From positions 1 through 25,351 of IMG/VR virus record IMGVR_UViG_3300043446_001392: a stretch of DNA of 25,351 nt, one strand, 5' to 3'. Positions 6,707-21,344 of the stretch are shown here, in pieces. The translations under genes were made by a program, and so were the position numbers. The first letter of the stretch is position 1; each line of letters begins with the position of its first letter. This DNA is from a virus. The notes under the pieces were generated by a model, which made no database searches, was not told where the DNA came from, and worked only from the letters and a program-made list of their open reading frames with translations.

Positions 6707-7108
6707 ATGGAAATCGAAATTCAAAAATTCATATTGGTTTGTATTGCAAATGCGTTTGCAATTTATGGTTTGTATTGGGCAATGTATTTTGATTGGAAAC
6801 CGTCGGGCGCAAAACAAATCGATATTACCAAACCCAAAAAATCAATGGTTGATGAAAATTCAAAAATGATTTTATGGTTTGTCAGGTATTACGCGCCAAT
6901 TGTATTTGGTAAAAAATTATCAAAACCAATTGCGTTGTGCCCGGTGTGCATGGCATCAATACATTCAACGTATTGGTATTTGCCGATGTTTGGATTTGAT
7001 GCAACAACAATCGCAACCGTTTTAATATCCATTTTCAAATACGGTTTGTACATGGTAACGTTGGCAGGATTCAATGCAACAATCATTTCAATAACGAACG
7101 AAAAATAA
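6707..7108 (+). CDS. hypothetical multi-pass membrane protein with CPxC motif, 133 aa
   Basis: ATG 6707 follows the upstream stop by one base and is preferred over TTG 6695. There are two to three hydrophobic segments: ~7-27 (FILVCIANAFAIYGLYWAMYF), an amphipathic middle, and ~87-130 (two close helices including IATVLISIFKYGLYMVTLAGF). The cytosol/membrane boundary motif LCPVCMASIHSTYW resembles the Cys-pair plus aromatic pattern of DUF1360-type small membrane proteins, which is a tentative match. It probably inserts in the host inner membrane. Function unknown. Confidence 0.6.
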   Translation: MEIEIQKFILVCIANAFAIYGLYWAMYFDWKPSGAKQIDITKPKKSMVDENSKMILWFVRYYAPIVFGKKLSKPIALCPVCMASIHSTYWYLPMFGFDATTIATVLISIFKYGLYMVTLAGFNATIISITNEK

Positions 7109-16110: not shown

Positions 16111-16677
16111 ATGGCAAATTGTGTTGAATATTGTAATACGTCGCCAATTGGTACGCCCGACGTTATTGGTTGTGGCAATGACCCGGTTGGCGGTATGTCC
16201 GCAATCATTTGGTTAGCGTGCAATCACACCATTACTGACCCGTCGAATAGTACACAAATCAATTCGAACATTTCAGCGGGTAAGGCATGGTTGTTCCAAC
16301 GTGTTTCGGTTGAATTAACCGAACCGTCACCCGTAACGCAGGAATCGTTAGTCCCGTGCGAAACGGAACAATTGGTAACGTATGACCGCGAATTAACGTA
16401 TGTCAACCCGAACGTGAATGCAACAAACATTGCGGTTCACGATAAATTGTTTGACGGGCGTTCGTTGGGCGGTGCGCTAATTTACGAATGCGGTTCGGAT
16501 GACGACACGGCATATTACGTTACATGGATTGATTCAACAATCCGTATGACGGGAGGTCGCGTTGTCCCAATGAAAAATACCGAATTCCAAAAATTCAGCG
16601 GCAAAGGCAAATGGCGTTCGAAAAAAAATCCGATGCGCTATTCCGCGCCGACGTCCGTTCCCGGTTTCGGTTCATAA
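16111..16677 (+). CDS. structural protein, candidate major tail (tube) protein, 188 aa
   Basis: ATG 16111 with an A-rich leader (AAAATAAAAATTGCA). The start MANCVEYCNTSPIG and a Cys-containing N-terminus lead into a beta-rich body ending in a basic tail (KFSGKGKWRSKKNP). The size, single-gene unit, own leader and downstream hairpin fit an abundant virion protein such as the tail tube. It is less likely a capsid protein, since head genes lie after the portal. The usual order would place the tube gene before the chaperone, so this remains inference; a decoration protein is the main alternative. Confidence 0.55.
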   Translation: MANCVEYCNTSPIGTPDVIGCGNDPVGGMSAIIWLACNHTITDPSNSTQINSNISAGKAWLFQRVSVELTEPSPVTQESLVPCETEQLVTYDRELTYVNPNVNATNIAVHDKLFDGRSLGGALIYECGSDDDTAYYVTWIDSTIRMTGGRVVPMKNTEFQKFSGKGKWRSKKNPMRYSAPTSVPGFGS

Positions 16678-16680
16678 TTG

Positions 16681-16706
16681 ATAACGGGAATTTTTATTCC
16701 CGTTAT
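16681..16706 (+). terminator. perfect hairpin after the 188-aa structural gene
   Basis: ATAACGGGAA (16681-16690) pairs with TTCCCGTTAT (16697-16706) around a TTTTTA loop, 3 bases after the TAA. Only two T follow before the tRNA-like element, so it may act as a weak terminator, as an RNA-stabilising or processing hairpin, or both. Confidence 0.65.
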
Positions 16707-16708
16707 TT

Positions 16709-16798
16709 CGTCAAATGGTGTAATGGCAACATGACATGATATTGCAATAACAATTGCAATTGAATGTTGATGCGGGTTCGATTCCCGTTTTGACGGCA
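16709..16798 (+). tRNA. tRNA-like element with no canonical anticodon arm
   Basis: Acceptor stem CGTCAAA (16709-16715) pairs perfectly with TTTGACG (16789-16795), followed by G as discriminator and CA. The D arm is GTG (16718-16720)/CAT (16730-16732) with loop TAATGGCAA, including the conserved A and GG. The T arm is GCGGG/CCCGT (16772-16776, 16784-16788) with the canonical TTCGATT loop. Between the D and T arms lie 39 bases, about 16 more than a short-variable-arm tRNA. I tested every 7-base-loop register there and none gives a 5-bp anticodon stem. Instead it folds as ACAT/ATGT, a GAT/TGA internal loop and an 8-bp ATTGCAAT stem with an AACA loop. It cannot be assigned an amino acid. It may be a degenerate tRNA, a tRNA with an insertion in the anticodon loop, or a mimic. 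Confidence 0.6.
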
Positions 16799-16828: not shown

Positions 16829-19126
16829 ATGTCAAAATCAAAATCACGGGGTGTTGTTTTATGCGCGTATGGAAAACGCGGGTATGTTTATTCAGCATTC
16901 AATTTGGCATATTCAATCAAATACCATTCGCCGGATTTGCCCGTAACATTATTGCATGACGAAACCATTTATTCGGAATTGCAACAATGGCAATTTCAAT
17001 ATTTTGATAAAATGCAGGCGATACCAAACAATGTAAAATACAGGTTTGGCAAATTAGACCCGGCGCAAATCAAAATATCCGTTTACGAATTTTTGCCGTA
17101 TGATTACAATTTGTTTGTTGATGTTGACGCGTTGGCATTATCCGATTGGAATGTAATATTTGATGAATTGATTGCGGACGGTGGATATTATTACACGCAT
17201 ATTATTGGCGAACACAAATTGTCATACGGAAATGAAATTCCGACAATGTATTGGGCATGGGCAAATGACATTTGGCGTCATTACAATTTGGATAATGACG
17301 CAATTTTACCGTCAACAAATTCATCGTTTCAATTCATAAAAAAATGTAGTGAATCCGAATTGTTGTTCAATCGCATCAAATCAAATTACAACAACCCAAT
17401 TCCATTGAATCAATTGCGTTATCAATGGGGTGGAGCGCAACCGGATGAATTGTATTTGAATGTTGCATTGGCGCAAACGGGATTGATGCCGAAAACCAAA
17501 CGCCGTTATTTGTACATGGCAAACGAACGGTTTGAAAAAACGTTCACGGATATTGAAAACGAATTTCCAATATTATGTTTATTTGGTAATTCTGAAATGG
17601 TCATGTCAATTTATTCCGATTGGTATGACCGTTTGTTAATTAACATGTTGCGCGAACACGGGCAAAACCATTATTTCAAATGGCATCATATTTCAGCGGA
17701 CAAACACGCAAACACAAAACCAAAACCCGTGAATCAATCAACCGTACAATACACGGATAATTTCAGGATACCGGAACGTTCGGGTGAAAATGTGAATTTG
17801 TTTGTGCCTTTTTTCATTGATGCAAACGAAACCCGGACGAATGAATTGAAACGATGTTTGCAAAACAATATTGCCAACAATCAAATTGATAAAATTGTTT
17901 TGTTGTGCGATACCAAAATTGACGATTCAATAATTGAATCGGGCAACGGAAAAATTATTGTTGAATATACCAACAAACGGCAAACGTTTTTGGACGCCGT
18001 GAATTCAGCGAACAAACATTCCGAATCACCATTCGATATTTCAATTGTATGCAATGCCGATATTTATTTTGATGAACGCGCAATACAATTGATGCGCGCA
18101 TCCAATTTGGACAAATACGCATTTTCATTGTCACGATGGGACGTCGGGTCGGACGGCGCGGCAACGCATTACAATTATGAATGGTCAAACGATACATGGG
18201 TTTGGTCGGGTCAATTACCATTGGATTCGAAACAGGGCGGCGAATTGAAAATTGATTTTCCATTTGGTGTGCCCGGTTGCGACAATCGATTTTCGTATGA
18301 ATTGAATAAACGCAAATGTGTTGTCAACCCGTCGTATCATATTAAAACATACCATTTGCATTTGACGAACATACGGCATTACAACAACCATGACCGTTTG
18401 CCCGACGATGGATATTTAGCGGTATTTGCCGATGGAATTGAAAAATATTTGAAACCAAAAATGTTGTTTATTCAGCCGGGCAAAACGGGCGACATAATTT
18501 TATGCGCGCCGATTGCAAAATGGTTTTCAAATAATTGGAATGTTGATTGGAAATGTCCGATTCAATACGCATCCATGTTCAAACATTTGCCGTATTGCAT
18601 GCATATTGAAAATGAAATCGGTGAATACGATAAAACGTTGGACATTGCATTTGGTTTGGGCGGCGCGCCGGAATCATATTGGCAGGATAACAAACACAAA
18701 TACAATTCATTTGTAACATTGAAATATGAATTGGCGGGCGTCCCGGTAAATGAAAAAACAAATTTGAAATACACCCGGAACATTGACAATGAAAATCGAT
18801 TGTTCGAATCGATAACTGAAAAATTCGCCGGGAAAAATTATGTATTGGCACACGAAAATTCCGATTATGGTTCGCCAATAAACGTTGTTGCCGAAAACAA
18901 AATATTATTTGAACCGATTGACGGGTATTCAATTTTTGATTGGCGGCGTGTTATTGAAAACGCATCCGAAATACATTGTATTGATTCGTCATTGTGCAAT
19001 TTTGTTGATGCGTTGCCCGGCGCGGCAACAATTAAAAAAGTATATTACAAAACAAATAAAGTCCCGAATCAATGGGACGAAACATTATTGACAAATAATT
19101 GGATTCGTAACGATGTCATTGGATAA
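16829..19126 (+). CDS. three-domain glycosyltransferase
   Basis: 765 aa. Domain 1 (~8-290) is GT-A, GT8-like: VVLCAYGKRGYVYSAFNLAYSI start and a DxD as FVDVDAL (98-100). Domain 2 (~320-535) is a second GT-A-like unit: NLFVPFFIDANETRTNELKRCL start, metal site NAD (409-411), then FPFGVPGCDNRFSYEL and a His-rich end (YHLHLTNIRHYNNHDR). Domain 3 (~545-765) is GT9/heptosyltransferase-like GT-B: MLFIQPGKTGDIILCAPIAKW start and a late IHCIDSSLCNFVDALPG that matches the nucleotide-sugar site. It likely builds a short glycan in successive steps; acceptor unknown. It heads a four-gene cassette and overlaps the next gene by 14 bases. Confidence 0.85.
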   Translation: MSKSKSRGVVLCAYGKRGYVYSAFNLAYSIKYHSPDLPVTLLHDETIYSELQQWQFQYFDKMQAIPNNVKYRFGKLDPAQIKISVYEFLPYDYNLFVDVDALALSDWNVIFDELIADGGYYYTHIIGEHKLSYGNEIPTMYWAWANDIWRHYNLDNDAILPSTNSSFQFIKKCSESELLFNRIKSNYNNPIPLNQLRYQWGGAQPDELYLNVALAQTGLMPKTKRRYLYMANERFEKTFTDIENEFPILCLFGNSEMVMSIYSDWYDRLLINMLREHGQNHYFKWHHISADKHANTKPKPVNQSTVQYTDNFRIPERSGENVNLFVPFFIDANETRTNELKRCLQNNIANNQIDKIVLLCDTKIDDSIIESGNGKIIVEYTNKRQTFLDAVNSANKHSESPFDISIVCNADIYFDERAIQLMRASNLDKYAFSLSRWDVGSDGAATHYNYEWSNDTWVWSGQLPLDSKQGGELKIDFPFGVPGCDNRFSYELNKRKCVVNPSYHIKTYHLHLTNIRHYNNHDRLPDDGYLAVFADGIEKYLKPKMLFIQPGKTGDIILCAPIAKWFSNNWNVDWKCPIQYASMFKHLPYCMHIENEIGEYDKTLDIAFGLGGAPESYWQDNKHKYNSFVTLKYELAGVPVNEKTNLKYTRNIDNENRLFESITEKFAGKNYVLAHENSDYGSPINVVAENKILFEPIDGYSIFDWRRVIENASEIHCIDSSLCNFVDALPGAATIKKVYYKTNKVPNQWDETLLTNNWIRNDVIG

Positions 19127-19781
19127 TAACATTTTACCTGAAATTGGAATCGATGAATTTGGTGTTTCAATATTTGACATTGTATCAATGAAATCAATTC
19201 AATCAGTTTTGGAAATTGGCACGGGGTCGGGTGGCGGTTCAACATCACAAATTATTGATGCGTTGATGCAAAAAACAAATTCCAAAAAAACATTTGATAC
19301 AATTGAAATTAGTAAAACACGAAACAAAACGGCGGCGAATAAATATCGACAAATTGAATTTGCCGAATTTCATTGCGGTTGTTCCGTTCATCCTGACGAA
19401 TATTCAACCGAATTTGATGTTGTTGAATTTTACAACAATAAAAAAACGGCATTGAATCAATATCCGTTGGAAATGGTTTTGCAATGGCGGCGCGATGAAT
19501 TGAATTACATTCAATCACATAAGCCGGAAACACAATTGATTGATAAAATAAAAATCAATCGCGGTTTGAATGCATTTGATTTTGTTTTGATTGACGGTTC
19601 GGAATTTACAGGCATTGCGGATTTGTCAAATGTTTTTGGCTCAAAATATATTGCATTGGATGACATTGACGCATACAAAAACAATATCAATTATTTTCGA
19701 TTGACCGATTCGCGGGAATACAAATTGGTAATTGAAAATTGGAATTTGCGCAATGGGTTTGCAATATTCAAATTGAAATAA
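19113..19781 (+). CDS. class I SAM-dependent methyltransferase
   Basis: 222 aa from ATG 19113, inside the end of the glycosyltransferase gene. The Rossmann SAM-binding motif I is VLEIGTGSGGGSTSQ (~32-46), the acidic post-I position is IEIS, and the motif IV-like FDFVLIDGSEF is followed by KYIALDDIDAYKNNINYFRL. This pattern occurs in sugar/small-molecule O-methyltransferases found beside glycosyltransferases. No target-recognition or DNA-methylase motif (such as DPPY) is seen, so DNA methylation is unlikely. It probably methylates the glycan made by its neighbours (inference). Confidence 0.8.
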   Translation: MSLDNNILPEIGIDEFGVSIFDIVSMKSIQSVLEIGTGSGGGSTSQIIDALMQKTNSKKTFDTIEISKTRNKTAANKYRQIEFAEFHCGCSVHPDEYSTEFDVVEFYNNKKTALNQYPLEMVLQWRRDELNYIQSHKPETQLIDKIKINRGLNAFDFVLIDGSEFTGIADLSNVFGSKYIALDDIDAYKNNINYFRLTDSREYKLVIENWNLRNGFAIFKLK

Positions 19782-19782
19782 C

Positions 19783-20523
19783 ATGGACGTATTATCATTG
19801 CGCAGGAAATCGGAAAACATTAGTATTGATGTTGTCGATGCAACATTGAAAAACATATTTTCATCGAACGATGGATTGAAAAAAAACATATTGTTTATTG
19901 GCGCGCCGTCCGATTGGTCATTTTATGACCGAATAATTTACAACGCGCGCCGTATGAATCAACCGTTACAACAACCAACATACACCGTATCCGTAATTGA
20001 TTATTTGCAGGAATTTATTTCACCGTTGCAAAATAAATATTGGCGTTATCCGGGTGTTAAATTTTATTTTGGAACACCTACGGGCGGCGATGAATTTATT
20101 AGCGCGGAACAAATACATGAATATTACCGCGACAAAAACAATGGCAAAGGTGAAAACGCATTGGCGTATTCCGATGCGATTGATGCGCGCGTAAATGAAA
20201 TTCGTATGGCGTCGCGTTTCGTTGGTAATGGTGACAATGCAATTGAAACGGCATATTCAGAATCAAACAATGGCGATTTTGATGTTATCATATTCAATTC
20301 ATTTTGGTTTGGTGGGTTGAAATCAATTGCATCACGAATGGAAAATGCGCAACATTATGTTGTGTTCAATTCAAATACAATTGCAGGATATGTTGTTGAC
20401 GATGCATTGGGTTTGTCCGAACGTTTTAAGGAATCGAAAAAATATTTGACGGGTTCGGAAACAGGCGACAATTCATACAATGGAAATCGCGGCATTGCAT
20501 ATTACACAAACATTCCAAAATGA
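19783..20523 (+). CDS. unknown protein of the glycosyltransferase cassette, 246 aa
   Basis: ATG 19783 one base after the methyltransferase stop. The N-terminal region KKNILFIGAPSDWSFYDRIIYNARR looks like a Rossmann-type beta-alpha start. Later DFDVIIFNSFWFGGLKSIASRM and AQHYVVFNSNTIAGYVVDDALG give a second beta-alpha repeat. This could be a divergent methyltransferase or sugar-modifying enzyme, but the glycine-rich SAM or NAD motif is not clear. Its stop overlaps the next glycosyltransferase start (ATGA), so it is part of the same translational unit. Confidence 0.6.
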   Translation: MDVLSLRRKSENISIDVVDATLKNIFSSNDGLKKNILFIGAPSDWSFYDRIIYNARRMNQPLQQPTYTVSVIDYLQEFISPLQNKYWRYPGVKFYFGTPTGGDEFISAEQIHEYYRDKNNGKGENALAYSDAIDARVNEIRMASRFVGNGDNAIETAYSESNNGDFDVIIFNSFWFGGLKSIASRMENAQHYVVFNSNTIAGYVVDDALGLSERFKESKKYLTGSETGDNSYNGNRGIAYYTNIPK

Positions 20524-21344
20524 CGCGCATGAAACGAATTGCATTCACAATAATTTACAATGGTCAACACCATTTAACGCATAATTTTTTTGCGTTGAAA
20601 ATGATTGAAATGTTTGATTATTGGGTTGTTGTCGAAGGCGCGGCACAAAATAACGGTTCAACAAATTGGTGCAATAATTTGGATGTTCCCGCGAATTCAA
20701 CCGATGGAACAATTGAATTTATGAATACCATTATTGAAAATCATGACAATGTTCGTTTTGTTGTTGGCGATGGAAAATGGAATTCAAAGGATTCAATGGT
20801 CAATGCGGCATTGGATGAAATACAAAAATTAGTTGATAACGAACGGTGTTTTGTTTGGGAAATTGACGCGGATGAACAATGGGAATTTGACGCATTGATT
20901 GAAAACGAAATTCATTTGATGAAATCGGGTTCGAATTGTGGCGCGGTTCGATGGAATCATTTTGTTGCACATGATTTGGTTGCGGTCGGCGATTGGGGCG
21001 GCAATTTGAATACCCGGTTATGGATAATTGACGAACCGAAAACACAACGTTTTATTTCACACGAACCGCCCGTATTGCAGGGCGCAAACACGCCAATTGA
21101 ATTGCCGCGCAAATGCAATCATTATTCATATTATTTTGAACGCGACGTTCATTTCAAATCGTTGTATTACGGCGGGCATCAAAACATTTATGCAAATTGG
21201 TTTCGATTACAAATGGACGGTGAACGTAAACGTTTGGAATTCCCGTTACATATTTCATATTTATTCGGAAACGATACATACATTGGAAAAACAAACGCAT
21301 TTATTGTACCATTAAAATATGTTCAAAATGAAAACGCAAAATAA
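20520..21344 (+). CDS. GT-A family glycosyltransferase, 274 aa
   Basis: Starts by ATGA overlap (ATG 20529 is a possible later start). The beginning KRIAFTIIYNGQHHL, the segment DYWVVVEGAAQNNGST and the metal-binding FVWEIDADEQW (IDAD at 115-118) are typical of GT2/GT17-like enzymes. Downstream, the aromatic C-terminal half includes CNHYSYYFERDVHFKSLYYGG, which probably forms the acceptor site. The donor sugar cannot be predicted. It ends the cassette; a small basic ORF overlaps its last codons and the portal gene follows. Confidence 0.8.
   Translation: MTRMKRIAFTIIYNGQHHLTHNFFALKMIEMFDYWVVVEGAAQNNGSTNWCNNLDVPANSTDGTIEFMNTIIENHDNVRFVVGDGKWNSKDSMVNAALDEIQKLVDNERCFVWEIDADEQWEFDALIENEIHLMKSGSNCGAVRWNHFVAHDLVAVGDWGGNLNTRLWIIDEPKTQRFISHEPPVLQGANTPIELPRKCNHYSYYFERDVHFKSLYYGGHQNIYANWFRLQMDGERKRLEFPLHISYLFGNDTYIGKTNAFIVPLKYVQNENAK

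What the first reader, a model, noticed from the sequence alone, without database searches (positions are those of the whole stretch)
16709..16798. tRNA-like RNA in which the anticodon arm is replaced by a long hairpin
Acceptor stem, D arm (with GG) and T arm (TTCGATT) are all well formed, with only G:T wobbles at stem ends, yet no register gives a 5-bp stem with a 7-base anticodon loop. The middle folds as ACAT/ATGT, then GAT/TGA (which can form tandem G-A pairs), then the 8-bp palindromic ATTGCAAT stem capped by AACA: about 15 stacked pairs. Decay alone would not be expected to leave such a clean hairpin while the other arms stay intact. Possibilities include a tRNA mimic, a decoy for host anticodon nucleases or tRNA enzymes, an RNA-processing or stability device after the structural gene, or a tRNA with a small insertion in the anticodon loop.
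Basis: partly seen in the sequence, partly recalled or inferred. Interest (0 to 1): 0.75.

Follow-up and report, generated by a model that had tools for sequence, protein, structure and literature searches.

The report
Phage tRNA-like RNA without anticodon loop
A small phage carries one RNA gene that folds like a transfer RNA but has a hairpin where the code-reading loop should be, so it cannot read codons in the usual way; other phages carry comparable odd tRNAs, one family of them conserved, which suggests that some phages make tRNA look-alikes for another purpose.

Summary
At 16709-16796 Infernal finds a tRNA (43.9 bits) and ARAGORN calls "tRNA-???". Acceptor, D and T arms and conserved D- and T-loop bases are intact. 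One correction: the anticodon stem survives (GACAT/ATGTT, one G·U); the 7-nt loop has become a 26-nt extension (GAT - ATTGCAAT/AACA/ATTGCAAT - TGA).

The element starts 3 nt after a terminator-like hairpin between a structural gene and a glycosyltransferase-like gene. The same gene junction in at least 12 relatives has no tRNA, so this is a lineage-specific insertion. No homologue of the element was found, so covariation of its hairpin cannot be tested.

Odd anticodon arms recur: of ten tRNA-like genes in the window and its relatives, only one is canonical. A separate pattern scan exposed a phage RNA family (58 contigs) whose anticodon loop is replaced by a conserved ~35-nt module, with strong covariation. 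It is absent from 395 Bacteroidota genomes, and no credible match was found in 50,697 phage records.

Best reading: a non-decoding tRNA-like RNA, perhaps a decoy (function inferred). Main rival: a recently broken tRNA.

The parts
16111..16677 (+). Gene upstream: small structural (probably tail-related) protein, 188 aa
   Evidence: Conserved in relatives at 24-42% identity, always between the tail gene region and the glycosyltransferase-like gene; only weak profile hits, one relative to a tail family at E 0.0096
16682..16705 (+). Terminator-like hairpin TAACGGGAAT-TTTT-ATTCCCGTTA, followed by TTT
   Evidence: Perfect inverted repeat; terminator-like hairpins stand at the same junction in several relatives. 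The consensus scan did not list it, because its T run is short
16709..16715 (+). Acceptor stem 5' strand CGTCAAA
   Evidence: Pairs 7/7 with 16789-16795
16718..16732 (+). D arm GTGT-AATGGCA-ACAT
   Evidence: 4 bp, one G·U, loop with GG
16733..16737 (+). Anticodon stem 5' strand GACAT
   Evidence: Pairs with 16764-16768 ATGTT, one G·U (ARAGORN with introns allowed, pairing probability 0.78-0.92)
16738..16763 (+). 26-nt structured substitute for the anticodon loop: GAT, hairpin ATTGCAAT-AACA-ATTGCAAT (16741-16760), TGA
   Evidence: Sequence read directly; hairpin pairing probabilities 0.85-1.0
16764..16768 (+). Anticodon stem 3' strand ATGTT
   Evidence: See 16733-16737
16772..16788 (+). T arm GCGGG-TTCGATT-CCCGT
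   Evidence: 5 bp, one G·U, consensus T loop
16789..16798 (+). Acceptor stem 3' strand TTTGACG, then G73 and CA; a full CCA is not encoded
16829..19126 (+). Gene downstream: large protein, 765 aa, glycosyltransferase-like from its sequence
   Evidence: N-terminal ~300 aa conserved next to the 16111 gene in relatives; no Pfam match, so the glycosyltransferase label is by inspection only

Best explanation
It is a non-decoding tRNA-like RNA of a phage that probably infects Bacteroidota. The tRNA body and anticodon stem are kept; the anticodon loop has been exchanged for a hairpin. SHOWN: the anatomy, the absence of an anticodon loop, the insertion behind a terminator-like hairpin, and the absence of the element from the same junction in relatives. 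INFERRED: it is co-transcribed, cut out by RNase P and 3' processing enzymes and given CCA by the host, and lives as a stable tRNA-shaped RNA. INFERRED, more weakly: it acts as a decoy or sponge for host factors that recognise the tRNA body (tRNA-cleaving or tRNA-modifying enzymes, EF-Tu, synthetases), and it cannot be cut in an anticodon loop because it has none. I give about 0.5 to a functional non-decoding RNA and about 0.2 to the decoy mechanism in particular.
For: All four cloverleaf stems pair fully and the conserved tRNA bases are present, although only the decoding part is lost. In relatives the same thing recurs: of ten tRNA-like genes found in the window and its relatives only one (G024, Phe GAA) has a canonical arm, while the others have longer, shorter or rebuilt anticodon arms on intact bodies. 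An independent phage family (family A, 58 contigs) shows that such RNAs can be maintained by selection: conserved module in the loop, covariation score 0.838 against 0.194 in shuffles, including both inner pairs of the anticodon stem. Engineered 'tRNA scaffolds', with the anticodon stem-loop turned into an insertion region that keeps a hairpin, are made in E. coli (PMC3753655).
Against: The element is a singleton: no homologue was found, so selection on it cannot be shown. It is absent from the same junction in relatives, so it may be young and not yet tested by selection. The hairpin is AT-rich and only moderately unlikely by chance in this window. No promoter was recognised and no expression data exist. 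Phage tRNA genes also decay, and the wider survey was made with patterns that favour odd tRNAs.
Confidence: 0.5

Rival explanations
1. A tRNA gene recently broken by a small palindromic insertion in the anticodon loop. The other arms are intact only because there has been no time for them to decay; no function remains.
For: The element is found in one phage only and is missing from the same junction in at least 12 relatives. Taking out 17 or 19 nt gives a plausible 70-72 nt tRNA (Asn ATT by ARAGORN). The direct/inverted ATTGCAAT octamer is also found six other times in the window, so a local sequence origin is possible.
Against: The restored tRNA would carry an ATT anticodon or lack U33, which is unusual for Asn in bacteria. 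No parent tRNA with similarity over the whole body was found in 198 genomes of one Bacteroidota class. Odd anticodon arms with intact bodies recur in relatives, which a single accident does not explain.
Confidence: 0.32
2. An RNA-processing device ('tRNA punctuation'): RNase P cuts at 16709, three bases behind a stable hairpin, giving the upstream structural mRNA a protected 3' end and freeing the downstream mRNA; the anticodon arm is irrelevant.
For: The acceptor stem begins 3 nt after the terminator-like stem. In a distant relative (G027) another odd tRNA also starts about 2 nt behind a terminator-like hairpin and T run.
Against: Relatives manage the same junction with a hairpin alone or with no spacer at all. 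The odd tRNAs of the other relatives lie at unrelated places, without such a hairpin. A normal tRNA would do the job as well.
Confidence: 0.1
3. A tRNA with a short intron in the anticodon loop that is spliced out to give a decoding tRNA.
For: ARAGORN can read it as tRNA-Asn(ATT) with a 17- or 19-nt intron, one option lying exactly at position 37/38.
Against: Much too short for a group I or II intron; no bulge-helix-bulge motif (a symmetric 3x3 internal loop and an 8-bp helix instead), and bacteria have no archaeal-type splicing endonuclease (general knowledge). The product would have an atypical anticodon.
Confidence: 0.05

Closest known systems
Phage-encoded tRNAs with altered anticodon loops (van den Berg et al. 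2023, PMC10264068)
   Same: Phage-borne tRNA genes in which the anticodon loop is the part that differs, proposed to avoid host anticodon nucleases
   Different: Those are point changes in decoding tRNAs; here the loop and anticodon are gone, so the tRNA cannot replace a host tRNA in translation
Engineered tRNA scaffolds (Ponchon and Dardel; PMC3753655)
   Same: Acceptor stem, D and T arms kept; the anticodon stem-loop becomes an insertion region that maintains a hairpin
   Different: Man-made expression tool; this is natural and in a phage
Family A seen here: phage tRNA-like RNAs with AAGUCCGAGAC-[hairpin]-GGAGUAGGCAUCCAAAUG in the loop
   Same: Cloverleaf with the anticodon stem kept and a structured module in place of the loop; phage-borne
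   Different: Conserved module, many members, mostly in larger contigs with tRNA arrays; no sequence similarity to the insert of the window
T4 stable RNAs C and D of the tRNA cluster (from memory, not found in the library)
   Same: Small stable non-decoding RNAs encoded with phage tRNAs, function unknown
   Different: Different structures; similarity not tested here
tmRNA
   Same: tRNA-like body without an anticodon arm
   Different: Permuted around a long mRNA-like insert; ARAGORN finds no tmRNA in the window

Membership tests
tRNA (Rfam RF00005) | Cloverleaf body: acceptor, D and T stems with conserved loop bases | tested here: met
   43.9 bits, gathering 29, full model; all stems pair
tRNA (Rfam RF00005) | Anticodon arm with 7-nt loop, U33 and a readable anticodon | tested here: not met
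   ARAGORN tRNA-???; 26-nt loop region, no register gives 5 bp + 7 nt
tRNA (Rfam RF00005) | Processing, CCA addition and aminoacylation | not testable with these tools
   No RNA data; CCA not encoded in full
Family A of phage anticodon-loop-substituted tRNA-like RNAs (described here) | Module AAGUCCGAGAC...GGAGUAGGC in the loop | tested here: not met
   The window insert has no such motif; same architecture only
tRNA with archaeal-type intron | Bulge-helix-bulge at the exon-intron junctions | tested here: not met
   Symmetric 3x3 internal loop and 8-bp helix
tRNA with group I intron | Intron of about 200 nt or more with conserved core | tested here: not met
   Extra sequence is 17-19 nt; no such Rfam hit
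tmRNA | tRNA-like ends enclosing a tag reading frame | tested here: not met
   ARAGORN and Rfam find none
Decoy or sponge RNA for host tRNA enzymes (what it may work like) | Binds and titrates a host factor | not testable with these tools
   No experiment available

The most novel reading that the evidence does not exclude
The window element belongs to a broad, largely undescribed class of phage RNAs that keep a full tRNA body and anticodon stem but carry a structured, non-decoding module in place of the anticodon loop. One family of the class (family A) is clearly conserved; the window holds a second, independently evolved version that works as a tRNA-shaped decoy or scaffold.
Probability: 0.35. 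Interest if true: 0.8.

Novelty: new variant of a known kind. Interest (0 to 1): 0.58.

Why it matters
Phage tRNAs are usually explained by codon supply or by resistance to anticodon nucleases; both need a working anticodon loop. An RNA that keeps everything of a tRNA except that loop fits neither and points to a use of the tRNA body itself, for example as a decoy in the conflict over tRNA between phage and host. If the recurrence in relatives and the conserved family A are confirmed, a testable class of phage RNAs has been passed over because annotation tools report such genes as 'undetermined' tRNAs or miss them. ARAGORN found nothing in 29 of 120 stretches picked by the tRNA-like pattern, among them the family A members.

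Tried and rejected
Direct DNA searches for the element in phages, plasmids, IMG/VR and 198 Bacteroidota genomes of one class: only short local matches. Single-protein searches for close relatives found none; a two-sequence terminase profile (A2) and then a nine-sequence one (A5) opened the group. Group I intron, BHB intron and tmRNA readings were rejected on anatomy. A class II tRNA with a long variable arm was rejected: the hairpin lies between the two strands of the anticodon stem. No sub-threshold Rfam family other than tRNA is credible. Sigma-70 promoter scan uninformative, as expected for a likely Bacteroidota phage with no Shine-Dalgarno sites. The octamer ATTGCAAT was considered as a phage-wide binding site: 8 copies in the window, no clear pattern. 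One search found only Val-like tRNAs with long variable regions, not homologues.

Full report
OBSERVATION. The element is real. ARAGORN reports a single tRNA-like gene in the 25-kb window, 16709-16797 on the + strand, without an assignable anticodon. Infernal matches it to RF00005 over the full model with 43.9 bits against a gathering score of 29; the excess sequence is all in the anticodon arm. Acceptor stem 7/7, D stem 4/4, T stem 5/5, with one G·U each in the latter two, and the conserved A14, G18G19, A21 and TTCGATT bases are present. The stem therefore survives and the loop is what was exchanged, for GAT - ATTGCAAT AACA ATTGCAAT - TGA.

CHANCE. The tRNA body is not a chance match: a purpose-built scanner that ignores the anticodon arm gave no hit in 1.4 Mb of shuffled sequence. 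The hairpin alone is less decisive: P about 0.0035 for a perfect 8-bp hairpin in 34 nt, 64 of 5000 arm shuffles at least as stable, and 3.6% of 34-mers in this AT-rich window equally stable. The cloverleaf is 1 kcal/mol above the predicted minimum; unconstrained folding prefers a different pairing of the D arm.

SURROUNDINGS. The window is a virus record of 25,351 bases with terminase, portal and tape-measure genes. Start sites lack Shine-Dalgarno sequences and the closest relative in a cellular genome lies in a Bacteroidetes MAG, 52% terminase identity, so a Bacteroidota host is likely. The element lies between a small structural gene (16111-16677) and a glycosyltransferase-like gene (16829-19126). 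Its first base is 3 nt behind the stem of a terminator-like hairpin (16682-16705).

RELATIVES AT THE SAME PLACE. No close relative was found. A terminase profile reached 40-53% identical phages. The two neighbours of the element are adjacent in at least 12 of them: seven shown by tblastn with both genes, five more by reading on from the first gene. None has a tRNA at the junction; many have a terminator-like hairpin and then the next start codon. The element is thus an insertion into an old junction, peculiar to this lineage.

RELATIVES ELSEWHERE IN THE GENOME. In records of the wider group RF00005 finds tRNA-like genes at unrelated positions. Counting one further element seen only by my scanner (G020), there are ten with the window; one is canonical (G024, Phe GAA). 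The others: G001, 7-bp stem with one mismatch and 7-nt loop (21-nt arm instead of 17); G002, 21-nt arm with a 9-nt loop; G005, anticodon stem prolonged into a long hairpin, 58 nt between D and T stems; G020, two elements, one with 101 nt there; G027, 7-bp stem with 11-nt loop plus long variable arm; G031, one 3-bp stem and one 7-bp stem with 10-nt loop. Bodies stay intact while anticodon arms vary. The numbers are small, arms were partly assigned by eye, and some of these relatives are distant. In 50 still more distant records tRNAs were rare: three matches.

AN INDEPENDENT FAMILY. A scan for tRNA bodies with a long middle brought up phage RNAs in which the anticodon loop is replaced by AAGUCCGAGAC-[hairpin]-GGAGUAGGCAUCCAAAUG. 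A specific pattern found 58 contigs, 26 distinct full elements. On 21 of them, 96.2% of cells pair, and the covariation score is 0.838 against 0.194 in shuffles and at most 0.149 in slid controls; the two inner pairs of the anticodon stem and the three pairs of the module's hairpin change on both sides. Relatedness is only partly controlled by shuffles, but the slid versions control for it. The family has no Rfam entry of its own in the members scanned, which match tRNA at most. The exact pattern is absent from 395 Bacteroidota genomes, and similarity searches found no credible match among 50,697 phage records, although such searches are weak for short RNAs. Family A is not homologous to the window element. 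It shows that phages do maintain tRNA bodies with a non-decoding module in the loop.

MECHANISM. Shown: a tRNA body without a decoding loop, inserted behind a terminator-like hairpin. Inferred: transcription by read-through or an unseen promoter, RNase P and CCA maturation, stability of the kind exploited by engineered tRNA scaffolds, in which the anticodon stem-loop was turned into an insertion region that keeps a hairpin (PMC3753655). Its use is most simply as a tRNA-shaped decoy or scaffold; resistance to anticodon nucleases, proposed for decoding phage tRNAs (PMC10264068), would be a by-product and not the purpose, because it cannot stand in for a lost tRNA. The chief rival is a recent accident in a tRNA gene: singleton status and absence in relatives fit it well, and I give it 0.32.

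VERDICT. Observation confirmed with a refinement; interpretation partly supported; function open. New variant of a known kind. The recurring odd anticodon arms and family A raise the interest above that of a lone odd tRNA.

Noticed in passing
L013:2971, L040, L064, L343, L360, L372 and 50 more IMG/VR contigs: Family A: phage tRNA-like RNAs with a conserved ~35-nt module AAGUCCGAGAC-[hairpin]-GGAGUAGGCAUCCAAAUG in place of the anticodon loop; GAGA/GAGUA resembles a loop E (sarcin-ricin type) internal loop. Strong covariation; no own Rfam family.
   Followed up: yes
L054:564, L075 (- strand, 1022), L108 (- strand, 1057), L348:7046: Possible second family: tRNA bodies with a shared insert (GTGATCCTG..AAGGATACG..CAGCA..ATTCCAT..AAGGA) of 67-70 nt between D and T stems.
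   Followed up: no
L005, L011, L014, L015, L018, L338, L342, L343, L346, L353: Several phages carry tRNA-like genes with the same or nearly the same acceptor (AGTCAGG/CCTGACT) and similar T stems but quite different inserts, from 17 to 93 nt; the odd tRNA of G027 (ACTCAGG/CCTGAGT) looks alike.
   Followed up: partly
array contigs L002-L121 and L337-L385: In these contigs my scanner typed 866 tRNA-like genes as canonical, 27 as lacking U33 and 64 as lacking a canonical anticodon arm; the set is biased towards odd ones and some of the 64 are misregistered class II tRNAs.
   Followed up: partly
L207/L125:519 and L302: Odd tRNA-like genes of relatives with an AAA anticodon-like loop (GTAAACG, GTAAAAA) on 7-bp and 3-bp stems; AAA for Phe is unusual in bacteria.
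   Followed up: no
window 16829-21344: Several glycosyltransferase-like genes without Pfam match stand between tail and portal genes; the first is conserved at this place in relatives.
   Followed up: partly
window 6743-6762: Another hairpin with a similar sequence, ATTGCAAA-TGCG-TTTGCAAT, inside a coding region.
   Followed up: no
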